Both the position numbers and the translations under genes were made by a program. The notes below the pieces were generated by a model. It saw only the letters and a program-made list of their open reading frames with translations, ran no database searches and had not been told where the DNA came from. From an uncultured bacterium (lineage in GTDB: Bacteria; Cyanobacteriota; Vampirovibrionia; Gastranaerophilales; Gastranaerophilaceae), in NCBI GenBank assembly GCA_902797985.1, contig CADBUZ010000014.1:1-39495 (forward strand): a stretch of 39,495 nt of DNA. Reading direction: 5' to 3'. Positions 222-16,834 of this stretch are shown here, piece after piece; position 1 is the first letter of the stretch, and each line of letters begins with the position of its first letter.

Positions 222-758
222 CTATTCTAACCAAACATAATCTATATCTTTATTTTTAAAATCACACCAATCGTTATCATATATATTTAATTTTACAAAC
301 TTATTAAATGATGAATATTTCCAATCTTTTGGAGAAATACCATAATGTTTAACTGAATTATAATGAATATAATCGAAATGATTTTTAAAATCGTTTTCAT
401 CTCTAATAATATGGTCTAAAAATCTGCGTTGCCAAACTCCTGCTTCTTTTCGTGTTTGCATACTCTGTGGCAAATTTTCCTTTTGTGGTTTATCCTTCAA
501 ATAGTACGAAAAATATTTTTTTATACTTGAAATAATTTTTGAAAAATTTTATAATTCTTTTTCTTTAATAATCATGTGGATATGGTCTTGCATAACGCAT
601 ATTGCAATTATTTCAAACGGATAAATTGTTTTTGCTTTTTTGAATGACTGACGTAATAAATCAATATTATTTGTTAAAAATTTTTATCGGTTATATGTGA
701 CAATTGTAATAAAAATATATGAATAATCTTTTAAATAATACCTTTTATAATTTGACAT
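222..758 (-). pseudogene. REP-associated tyrosine transposase (RAYT/Y1 family), two in-frame stops
   Basis: One uninterrupted frame of 178 residues runs from an ATG at 758 to a stop at 222. It contains two nonsense codons, TAA at 684-686 and TAA at 549-551. The pieces align along the RAYT/IS200-like family. There is an N-terminal strand (YIFITIVTYNR), then the HUH metal motif QDHIHM, a KKYFSYY segment holding candidate catalytic tyrosines, and the C-terminal signature GVWQRRFLDHIIRDE followed by HFDYIHYNSVKH and DWKYSSF. The C-terminal part alone (222-500) stays open for 92 residues but lacks the HUH motif. The enzyme nicks single-stranded DNA at REP hairpins; this copy cannot make a full protein unless both stops are read through. 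The lack of a frameshift suggests fairly recent decay. Confidence 0.85.
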
Positions 759-6066: not shown

Positions 6067-6273
6067 TTATGCCTGCATACCTCCGTCACCGCCAATATGG
6101 TTATTCATTGCGATTGCATGGTCAGGAACGGTAAAAAGTCCTCCCGGATAATTTTCAGCACCAAAACGACTTTTTCTTACGTCTTCGTCACCGTTTTTTG
6201 TGAACGAATAATCAATGTCGTATCCAGTTGATTTTACATTTGAAATACTACTGCTACCATCAGTGTAGTACAT
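6067..6273 (-). CDS. Small protein of unknown function, strong RBS
   Basis: This is a 68-residue ORF with an excellent Shine-Dalgarno (ATGGAGG, 8 nt before the ATG). The protein is polar, with no membrane segment or signal peptide. The N-terminal half is Ser/Tyr/Asp-rich (YYTDGSSSISN, GYDIDYSFTKNGDEDVRK). The second half is rich in Gly, Asn and His (NYPGGLFTVPDHAIAMNNHIGGDGG). I recognise no family. It lies upstream of coaX on the same strand. The strong ribosome-binding site and non-shadow location argue that it is a real gene; its function is unknown. Confidence 0.6.
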   Translation of the reverse strand: MYYTDGSSSISNVKSTGYDIDYSFTKNGDEDVRKSRFGAENYPGGLFTVPDHAIAMNNHIGGDGGMQA

Positions 6274-6478
6274 AATATATCCTCCATATTAATATTCATA
6301 GTTATATCTTATGTATATACTAAGTTTTTTGTTTCAAAAAAATTGCCATGATTTTAAATCAATGTATACAAAACTTAACATGTCGTAAATACTGCATATT
6401 AGTCATATTAATCATATTGTTAAAAATTTATTTGTAACAAAAACTTAAAAACTTCTTTTCAACATATGACAAAAAGTG

Positions 6479-6561
6479 TATAATCTGGATATACACAATA
6501 CGTAGATCCAACTATTACTATCTGTTAAAGTATGAACCCAGTTTATTTCATACTTTTTTTT
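6479..6561 (+). ncRNA. Candidate ~70-nt small RNA or kinase leader with intrinsic terminator
   Basis: A perfect -10 box TATAAT (6479-6484) is followed by two helices and a terminator. The 5' helix is GGATATAC (6487-6494) with GTAGATCC (6502-6509), with one mismatch. The 3' helix is perfect, AAAGTATGAA (6527-6536) with TTCATACTTT (6547-6556), and runs into seven T residues. Transcription starting near 6491 would give an RNA of about 70 nt. No ORF fits inside. The sensor-kinase TTG start is 80 bp beyond the terminator, so this may instead be an attenuating leader for that gene. I recognise no known RNA family. Confidence 0.55.
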
Positions 6562-6641
6562 ATTTTGTTTAATTCTCTTTTCATTTTTTGTAATCCATTT
6601 TATAATGTGATGGGGATAGTTTCTAAAATTTTGAGGTTGGT

Positions 6642-8300
6642 TTGGAAAAATTTGAATTTTTCAATAAATTTAATAATCCGGTGTTCGTTTTAGATAATAA
6701 AACATTAGATGTTAAATATCAGAATAATGCGTTTAAAAGGGCCTTTTCTGATTTTTCAACTTTGAAAAAGTTTTATCATAAACTTAATTGGGATGTATGT
6801 TTGATTGATTCAGAAGATTGGGAACTCCATTCACCTATTATTCAAGCTATAAAATCATCAGAAAGCTTCGTTTCTTATGTGAGTTATCAGGATAAAAATA
6901 ATGAATACAGATACTATAATATAAATGCGATAAAGCGCGGCGGAAAATATACTATTATATTTTTTGTGGATGTAACCTCTGATGTTAAGTATGAACAGCT
7001 TTTAGAAGAAAAGAAATCTGTTGATTTAAAATGTCAGCTTCTTGACGAAGATATTAAAAGTTTGGAATCCATTAAACAAAAAGCTCAATCTCAAGCTATA
7101 AAAATGGCTTTAATAAATAAGATTTCTAATATTATGAGAGAATCTATAGATATATCTTCTATTATTTTGCCTACTCTGAAAGAATTATCTATCATTTTTG
7201 GCGCGTTTAGAGCGTATTACGCAGAATATAATATTAATAATAATATATTTAAGATATCTCAAACTTTTGATAAAGAAGAAACGGGCATGCCAATCATGTT
7301 TGATTCAATGGTTATGCGAAAAATAGGGAATAAAGAAATTTCTCACACCAGATGCTTAAAAGAATTTATGTCGGCTAAACCGTTTAAAGAATCAACTCAA
7401 CGTATAATTTTACCGATTTATCATATGAGTGAACTTTTAGGAGTTGTGGTTCTTGTTTCTCGGCAAAGACGTGAGTTGAGTGAGGAGCTTGATATATTAG
7501 AAAATATTTCTTCTCAATTAGGTACGGCTATTGTCCATGCCAATTTATACAAAAAAAATCTCGAAACAGTTGAAGAACTTAAAAAAACATTGAAAGAACT
7601 GAATGATACTCAACTTCAATTAATAAACTCAGAGAAAATGGCTTCTCTGGGGCAACTTATTGCAGGGGTTGCTCACGAAATTAACACGCCTGTTGCGGCA
7701 ATTAAGTCTAATAACGAAATTTATACAAAACTAATTAAAAAAATTTCCGATGAAAAATTATTATCCCTGTTTAATGATATCAATTCTACCGATAAAGAAG
7801 CAATTCAGCGAATAAATAAGTTAGTGACATCATTAAAGAAATTTGTTCGACTTGATGAAGCAGAGCTTCAAGATGCGGATATTAATAAAGAGCTTGATTT
7901 AACTCTTGATTTAATACGTCATGAAACAAAGCACGGTATTACTGTTGTTCGTAATTATGGCGATATTCCTCAAATAAAATGTTATCCTAATATGCTTAAT
8001 CAAGTTTTTATGAATATTCTTGTTAATGCTTGTCAGGCAATTGAAGAAGAAGGTACAATTACAATAACTACTTCATTTAATAATAATAAATTGGCTATTT
8101 CTATAAAAGATACAGGCAGAGGTATAGAAGATACAAAGAAAATTTTCGAAGCAGGATACACAACTAAAAGTGCAGGTATCGGTACAGGGCTTGGGCTTGC
8201 TATTTCTTCCAAAATAATTGCAAAGCATAATGGCGAAATCCATGTAAATAGTGAGGTTGGAAAAGGAAGCGAATTTATTATTACTATCCCTAGTGGGTAA
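6642..8300 (+). CDS. Orphan PAS-GAF sensor histidine kinase
   Basis: This 552-residue cytoplasmic kinase has, in order, a PAS-like domain (about 1-115), a coiled coil (115-160), a GAF-like domain (about 165-300), a coiled linker, a HisKA dimerisation domain with the phospho-accepting His in LIAGVAHEINTP (about residue 345), and an HATPase domain with the N box NILVNACQAI, G1 box DTGRGI and G2 box GTGLGLAIS. There are no transmembrane helices, so it should sense an internal ligand or partner. The start is TTG, supported by GAGGT 5-9 nt upstream. No response regulator is adjacent. The preceding small transcription unit (6479-6561) may control it. Confidence 0.93.
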   Translation: MEKFEFFNKFNNPVFVLDNKTLDVKYQNNAFKRAFSDFSTLKKFYHKLNWDVCLIDSEDWELHSPIIQAIKSSESFVSYVSYQDKNNEYRYYNINAIKRGGKYTIIFFVDVTSDVKYEQLLEEKKSVDLKCQLLDEDIKSLESIKQKAQSQAIKMALINKISNIMRESIDISSIILPTLKELSIIFGAFRAYYAEYNINNNIFKISQTFDKEETGMPIMFDSMVMRKIGNKEISHTRCLKEFMSAKPFKESTQRIILPIYHMSELLGVVVLVSRQRRELSEELDILENISSQLGTAIVHANLYKKNLETVEELKKTLKELNDTQLQLINSEKMASLGQLIAGVAHEINTPVAAIKSNNEIYTKLIKKISDEKLLSLFNDINSTDKEAIQRINKLVTSLKKFVRLDEAELQDADINKELDLTLDLIRHETKHGITVVRNYGDIPQIKCYPNMLNQVFMNILVNACQAIEEEGTITITTSFNNNKLAISIKDTGRGIEDTKKIFEAGYTTKSAGIGTGLGLAISSKIIAKHNGEIHVNSEVGKGSEFIITIPSG

Positions 8301-9502: not shown

Positions 9503-9536
9503 AAAGAGTGAACAGTTTGTTCACTCTTTTTTTTAT
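9503..9536 (+). terminator. Intrinsic terminator of the HEAT gene
   Basis: AAAGAGTGAAC (9503-9513), loop AGTTT and GTTCACTCTTT (9519-9529) make a perfect 11-bp stem that runs into a T-tract. The convergent TPR gene ends at 9554, but the T-tract on its strand is poor. Confidence 0.9.
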
Positions 9537-16795: not shown

Positions 16796-16834
16796 AAAGA
16801 GGTTGTCAATTATTGAACAACCTCTTTGTTTTAA
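16796..16834. terminator. Bidirectional intrinsic terminator
   Basis: AAAGAGGTTGT (16796-16806) and ACAACCTCTTT (16817-16827) form an 11-bp stem with a 10-nt loop. T-rich sequence follows on the plus strand and, less purely, on the minus strand, so it can serve both the duplicated-protein gene and gyrA. Confidence 0.85.

What the first reader, a model, noticed from the sequence alone, without database searches (positions are those of the whole stretch)
6479..6561. Structured ~70-nt transcript unit before the sensor kinase
A perfect -10 box, a 5' stem-loop and a perfect 10-bp terminator form a compact unit with no ORF, ending 80 bp before the orphan kinase. It could be a free small RNA or a termination-controlled leader for the kinase.
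Basis: partly seen in the sequence, partly recalled or inferred. Interest (0 to 1): 0.55.

Follow-up and report, generated by a model that had tools for sequence, protein, structure and literature searches.

The report
Conserved free-standing small RNA gene
A short stretch between two genes looks like the gene of a roughly 70-letter regulatory RNA kept almost unchanged in two related genera of uncultured bacteria, and it appears to have nothing to do with the sensor kinase that happens to follow it here.

Summary
A TATAAT box (6479-6484), a terminator hairpin (6527-6556) and a T-run are present. They recur as one block in 7 of 8 genomes of the same genus and 8 of 8 sampled genomes of a second genus. 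I recognised no copy elsewhere among 383 genomes of the order.

Two stretches predicted to be mostly unpaired are nearly frozen: ATACACAATAC (6491-6501), which marks the probable 5' end, and ATCCAACTATTACTATCTGTT (6506-6526).

The kinase-leader idea fails. In 6 of 6 other genomes holding both, the kinase lies on another contig, and its upstream sequence, read in five of those six, lacks the unit.

Best reading: an unannotated intergenic small RNA, probably pairing with target mRNAs through its frozen core; no Hfq was detected. The gene is well supported by conservation; expression, targets and function are unproven. No Rfam family matches.

The parts
6433..6439 (+). TGTAACA upstream motif, possible activator site
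   Evidence: present 45-47 bp upstream of the -10 box in 14 of 15 genomes, absent in G003, while its surroundings diverge in g1; function inferred
6456..6461 (+). -35-like TTTTCA (4 of 6), 17-bp spacer
   Evidence: the hexamer is weak, varies within g1 and differs in g56 (TAGTAT, TGGTAT, TGGTAA)
6479..6484 (+). -10 box TATAAT
   Evidence: present in 15 of 15 genomes
6491..6561 (+). inferred small RNA, about 71 nt (start +/- 2 nt, end in the T-run)
   Evidence: start inferred from -10 spacing and from the sharp onset of cross-genus identity: 6485-6490 52%, 6491-6501 100%; no transcript data
6491..6501 (+). frozen 5' motif ATACACAATAC
   Evidence: present in 15 of 15, always 6 nt after TATAAT
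6506..6526 (+). frozen core ATCCAACTATTACTATCTGTT, predicted mostly unpaired, candidate pairing region
   Evidence: 96% within g1, 88% between genera; unpaired in the minimum-energy fold of 8 of 9 relatives, a 4-bp helix in G002 and a weak helix in the window RNA
6527..6561 (+). intrinsic terminator: stem 6527-6536/6547-6556, loop 6537-6546, T-run 6557-6561
   Evidence: stem of 9-12 pairs in 15 of 15; loop 4-13 nt; one pair A-U in genus g1 is U-A in g56
6601..6606 (+). separate TATAAT, probably of the kinase (not part of the RNA unit)
   Evidence: TTTTCA-17-TATAAT, 6578-6606
6642..8300 (+). histidine kinase gene, only an accidental neighbour
   Evidence: Pfam HisKA and HATPase_c; on another contig than the unit in 6 of 6 other genomes holding both

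Best explanation
The stretch is a small, independent gene for a ~70-nt non-coding RNA. Transcription starts near 6491 from the promoter with -10 box 6479-6484, possibly helped by a regulator at the TGTAACA site, and stops at the hairpin and T-run ending at 6561. The RNA has a largely unpaired 5' part with two frozen motifs and one 3' hairpin that terminates and probably protects it. It most likely acts in trans by pairing its core (AUCCAACUAUUACUAUCUGUU) with target mRNAs, without Hfq. Shown here: conservation as a block, conserved terminator, lack of a kept reading frame, independence from neighbours. Inferred: start site, expression, trans-acting antisense action, regulation.
For: Block conservation in 7 of 8 (g1) and 8 of 8 (g56) sampled genomes. 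Within g1 the flanks are 34% identical just upstream (6400-6430) and just downstream (6562-6600) against 96-100% in the two motifs. Terminator stem of 9-12 pairs in 15 of 15, with variable loop and an A-U to U-A exchange between the genera. Neighbours change while the unit stays: in g1 the downstream side differs among genomes; in g56 the G215 copy has another upstream gene and the G099 copy another downstream side. In G215 the identity with other g56 copies runs up through the TGTAACA motif and ends about a dozen bases above it. Linker lengths break any reading frame. No match to any Rfam family at gathering score.
Against: No transcript data. G007 of the same genus lacks it (84% complete assembly). 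Found in only two genera of the order sample (with stricter filters that can lose weak matches). In g56 the upstream flank is itself fairly alike (68-80%), so the contrast there is weaker. An 18-nt antisense pattern of the core gave 84 hits in 15 genomes, 15 of them the unit itself, against 88 for the reversed-pattern control, so no target signal. The -10/5'-motif pair also occurs before a fusA-like gene of genus g7, so the 5' motif may serve the promoter rather than the RNA.
Confidence: 0.75

Rival explanations
1. Termination-controlled 5' leader of the histidine kinase: the hairpin switches between termination and readthrough into the kinase gene.
For: The unit lies 80 bp upstream of the kinase on the same strand in this genome.
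Against: In 6 of 6 other g1 genomes that hold both, unit and kinase lie on different contigs. The sequence upstream of the kinase in six relatives (G002-G007) lacks the unit. The kinase has its own TATAAT after the terminator. No conserved alternative pairing was seen in the folds.
Confidence: 0.03
2. The frozen stretch is kept mainly as DNA: an operator and promoter at the start site, perhaps the inverted repeat TGTATA-N7-TATACA over the -10 box and start, with a short by-product transcript.
For: TGTATA-N7-TATACA is present in every copy of the unit shown; a similar TATAAT-N6-TACACAATA lies before the fusA-like gene of genus g7.
Against: The core 6506-6526 lies 15-35 nt downstream of the inferred start and is nearly as frozen, and a terminator follows directly in 15 of 15. 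The left arm of the repeat is largely the -10 box itself.
Confidence: 0.12
3. A very short coding or leader-peptide gene ending in an attenuator.
For: The unit has a promoter and a terminator, as attenuators do.
Against: In the window no ATG, GTG or TTG lies between 6491 and the hairpin (read). Linker of 5, 6, 7, 10 or 11 nt destroys any frame. The downstream side differs among g1 genomes and the next gene can be convergent.
Confidence: 0.03
4. An RNA that acts by binding a protein (sequestering a regulator through the single-stranded motifs) rather than by pairing with mRNA.
For: Two nearly invariant motifs, predicted mostly unpaired; no antisense target signal.
Against: No repeated motif typical of titrating RNAs is seen in the unit (by eye); no protein partner was tested.
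Confidence: 0.15

Closest known systems
Yfr1, small RNA of photosynthetic cyanobacteria (PMC2190773, abstract read)
   Same: Similar size (54-69 nt), an unpaired ultraconserved stretch next to a 3' stem-loop.
   Different: The Yfr1 motif ACUCCUCACAC is not present; Yfr1 has two predicted stem-loops, this unit one; Yfr1 is reported in all lineages of cyanobacteria, this was found in two genera.
Generic intergenic trans-acting bacterial small RNAs (promoter, unpaired seed, intrinsic terminator; general knowledge)
   Same: Own promoter, short non-coding unit, unpaired conserved segment, terminator.
   Different: No Hfq gene detected in 15 of 15 genomes searched; no target known; not in Rfam.
Terminator-type attenuator leaders (general knowledge)
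   Same: Promoter plus intrinsic terminator upstream of a gene in this genome.
   Different: Not linked to the gene in relatives; no conserved alternative pairing seen; the kinase has its own promoter-like site.

Membership tests
Intergenic small RNA gene | Own promoter and own terminator close together, conserved as a block | tested here: met
   15 genomes; flanks diverged, most clearly in g1
Intergenic small RNA gene | No conserved reading frame | tested here: met
   linker lengths 5, 6, 7, 10, 11 nt, not in steps of 3
Intergenic small RNA gene | Independent of neighbouring genes | tested here: met
   (coaX-like gene upstream is shared by 7 of 7 g1 loci, but not by g56)
Intergenic small RNA gene | A discrete transcript exists | not testable with these tools
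   no expression data available
Trans-acting antisense small RNA | Complementary conserved target mRNA | tested here: inconclusive
   84 antisense hits (15 are the unit) against 88 controls; recurring hits read gave no site shared by both genera; short seeds genome-wide not tested
Hfq-dependent small RNA | Hfq in the genome | tested here: not met
   Pfam Hfq in 0 of 15 genomes; control rings in 5 of 14 known genomes
Kinase leader / attenuator | Conserved linkage to the regulated gene | tested here: not met
   different contigs in 6 of 6 other genomes holding both; unit absent upstream of the kinase in six relatives
Yfr1 | ACUCCUCACAC motif between two stem-loops | tested here: not met
   motif absent from the unit as read; one stem-loop in most folds; definition from the abstract of PMC2190773
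Any Rfam 15 family | Gathering score reached | tested here: not met
   0 matches in the window; 6400-6640: BtsR1 at 6564-6613, outside the unit, E 0.48; PyrG leader at 6440-6510 on the other strand, E 5.7; both far below gathering score

The most novel reading that the evidence does not exclude
A new, lineage-restricted small RNA family of uncultured rumen bacteria without a detectable Hfq, in which a ~20-nt unpaired core is frozen across two genera because it pairs with several essential mRNAs, and whose promoter is controlled by an unknown regulator at TGTAACA.
Probability: 0.3. Interest if true: 0.5.

Novelty: new member of a known kind. Interest (0 to 1): 0.38.

Why it matters
If transcribed, this is an unannotated small RNA family in uncultured bacteria for which two full-text searches listed no paper on their own small RNAs, judged from titles and abstract beginnings (the search words rest on a recalled, untested guess at the lineage). 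Its frozen core gives a concrete probe for post-transcriptional regulation in bacteria with no detectable Hfq. As a kind of object (promoter, unpaired core, terminator) it is ordinary.

Tried and rejected
Kinase leader: rejected. 5' stem-loop: rejected. Coding peptide: rejected on linker lengths. Mobile-element cargo: no match in plasmids or phages; the single viral-contig pattern hit lies in what reads as a phage coding region, without the rest of the unit. The one genome-contig pattern scan gave 5 contigs, all copies already known from the same genus.

Wider homologues: one search gave matches in 29 of 58 genomes. Seven are the unit; in the other 22 the matches are short (about 20-46 bases, E 2.4e-4 to 0.00975), mostly over the AT-rich 3' end, and were not read one by one. 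One search (up to 2 mismatches) gave matches in 34 of 383 genomes; 15 are the unit. Of the other 19 genomes I read 16 loci, none with the unit; the only sites of G326, G335 and G405 and second sites in G155 and G215 had no locus and were not read. One search gave 25 of 383 genomes at E <= 0.01; 15 are the unit (E 1.7e-16 or better). The 11 weaker matches (10 further genomes and a second site in G002) were read and none shows the unit. Searches sampled largely the same genomes.

The -10/5'-motif pattern hit 108 of 383 genomes. I read 30 loci; none carries the core and terminator. Nine of them, all genus g7, lie before a fusA-like gene.

Antisense targets: no excess over the reversed pattern (84, of which 15 are the unit, against 88). 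I then read some recurring hits (15 loci from a longer list). One, listed in 8 of 8 g56 genomes and read in five, lies inside a coding frame that reads as ribosomal protein L16. A second, read in two g56 genomes, lies inside a frame that reads as MiaB. A third, read in three g56 genomes, lies on the strand opposite a coding frame. A fourth (G144, G202 read; G178 listed) lies just before a terminator-like hairpin outside long frames; no Rfam match. A fifth (G002 and G003 only, 2 of 7 g1 genomes) spans the ATG of a 142-codon frame, but the two stretches are almost identical over 180 nt, so this may be one recently shared piece of DNA. None recurs in both genera, so I claim no target. Pairing with the start region of the divergent small ORF: in G004 2 of 200 shuffles were as good, in the other five genomes 35 to 161 of 200, so not supported.

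No covariation table was made with the structure-counting tool, because MAFFT did not align the stems of the two genera; stems were found per sequence instead. Model R1 is therefore sequence-only.

Full report
Observation. In 20 dinucleotide shuffles of the window, hairpins of this type average 0.15 per window, and 3 are found. Promoter-like matches by themselves are not clearly more than chance would give. Rfam has nothing at gathering score, and the two weak matches near the unit are not credible.

Conservation. A DNA search of 58 related genomes found the unit in 7 of 8 genomes of the same genus (own genome included), at 81-92% identity in the other six; 22 further genomes gave only short weak matches. 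A pattern search with up to 2 mismatches over 383 genomes of the family added 8 of 8 sampled genomes of a second genus (g56), read. A sequence-only model searched over 383 genomes of the order returned the same 15 at E 1.7e-16 or better. The weaker matches are not the unit. The family and order samples overlap heavily, so these searches are not independent.

Anatomy from comparison. Within the same genus, mean identity is 34% at 6400-6430, 54% at 6441-6475, 95% at 6476-6484, 100% at 6491-6501, 96% at 6506-6526, 100% for the 3' stem arm and 34% at 6562-6600. In g56 the upstream flank is more alike (68-80%) and the downstream flank is 46%. Between the two genera the six bases after the -10 box are 52% identical and the next eleven 100% (7 genomes of each genus). 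The frozen 5' motif lies exactly 6 nt after TATAAT in 15 of 15 genomes. That is where sigma-70-type transcription is expected to begin (general knowledge), so I infer a start at about 6491.

The terminator stem has 9-12 pairs in 15 of 15, with loops of 4-13 nt. The pair next to the shared GTATGA/TCATAC helix is A-U in the first genus and U-A in the second. That is one compensatory difference between two clades, so it counts as one event. TGTAACA stands 45-47 bp before the -10 box in 14 of 15.

The 5' stem-loop. It appears when the fold is started at the -10 box. From the inferred start, folding gives the terminator and little else: a weak extra helix in the window RNA, none in 8 of 9 relatives and a 4-bp helix in G002. 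As a whole the RNA is not strikingly stable in every genome: z -1.69 for the window and -4.64 to -0.64 for the relatives. The GGAT arm is missing in 8 of 8 genomes of the second genus, though the ATCC arm is kept there. The right arm is therefore kept for another reason.

Neighbours. In the same genus a coaX-like gene (Pfam PF03309 in the window; in the others recognised by eye) lies upstream in 7 of 7 loci, and a divergent small ORF was listed in 6 of 7. The downstream side differs among genomes (product names of neighbours in relatives were read by eye, not searched). In the second genus I looked at the neighbours of 7 of 8: one (G215) has another upstream gene and one (G099) another downstream side. 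The kinase is present in 8 of 8 genomes of the first genus. In the 6 others that hold both, it lies on a different contig from the unit. I read the sequence upstream of the kinase in six relatives, G002-G007 (220 bases, fewer in G005), and none has the unit; G007 has no unit anywhere found, and G001's kinase is cut at a contig end and was not examined. The window's kinase has its own TATAAT at 6601-6606. The unit is therefore very unlikely to be its leader.

Mechanism. The most likely reading is a trans-acting RNA with a frozen, mostly unpaired core and a protective terminator hairpin. No Hfq was found in 15 of 15 genomes (12 from the two genera), while the same search rings in 5 of 14 known genomes. 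A search for near-complete antisense matches to the core gave 84 hits, 15 of them the unit itself, against 88 for a reversed-pattern control. Recurring hits that I read lie inside or opposite coding frames, before a terminator-like hairpin, or, in two g1 genomes only, over a start codon; none is shared by both genera. Shorter seeds could not be tested genome-wide, because whole genomes were not available as files. Pairing with the divergent small ORF was tested and is not supported. The 5' motif together with the -10 box also stands before a fusA-like gene in genus g7 (9 loci read; gene recognised by eye), so part of the 5' conservation may belong to the promoter.

Comparison with known systems. 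The size and the 'unpaired conserved motif plus terminator' plan recall Yfr1 of cyanobacteria (PMC2190773, abstract read; other papers seen as a listing only), but the defining motif and the second stem-loop are absent. Two literature searches (listings and beginnings of abstracts only) showed no paper on small RNAs made by these bacteria; one listed paper, PMC9378797, is about microRNAs in rumen fluid. The search words rest on my recollection that the lineage may be Gastranaerophilales/Melainabacteria, which I did not test. Carrier contigs are titled 'uncultured bacterium', four of five with isolate names RUG...; RUG as 'rumen uncultured genome' is recalled.

Verdict. A real, conserved, unannotated small RNA gene candidate. 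It is a new member of a known kind, not a leader of the kinase, and its function is unproven.

Noticed in passing
window 6067-6273 (-): A divergent 68-aa small ORF with a glycine-rich end sits between the small RNA and coaX; a similarly placed short ORF was listed in 6 of 7 same-genus loci although its sequence varies strongly.
   Followed up: partly
L133-L141 (genus g7): The region before a fusA-like gene carries TATAATAGCGAWGTACACAATA or a close variant, sharing the -10/5'-end arrangement of the small RNA; TTTGTGTGATAA or a close variant lies further upstream.
   Followed up: partly
L060, L061, L064 (genus g56), ending about 12 bp upstream of TGTAACA: A GTAACA-N4-TGTTAC palindrome (GTAACACATTTGTTAC) lies upstream of the unit; it looks like a site of a dimeric regulator.
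   Followed up: no
L162 about 593-611 (-) and L163 604-621 (+): In G002 and G003 a stretch complementary to the small RNA core (2 mismatches, G-U allowed) spans the start codon of a 142-codon frame; the two copies are almost identical DNA.
   Followed up: partly
L171 581-598 (+) and L172 (-): In g56 a core-complementary stretch lies just before a strong GC-rich terminator-like hairpin with a T-run, outside long reading frames; possibly the end of another transcript. No Rfam match.
   Followed up: partly
window 9503-9529 (+) and 16797-16826 (+): Two further terminator-like hairpins with T-runs, shortly after the ends of ORFs.
   Followed up: no
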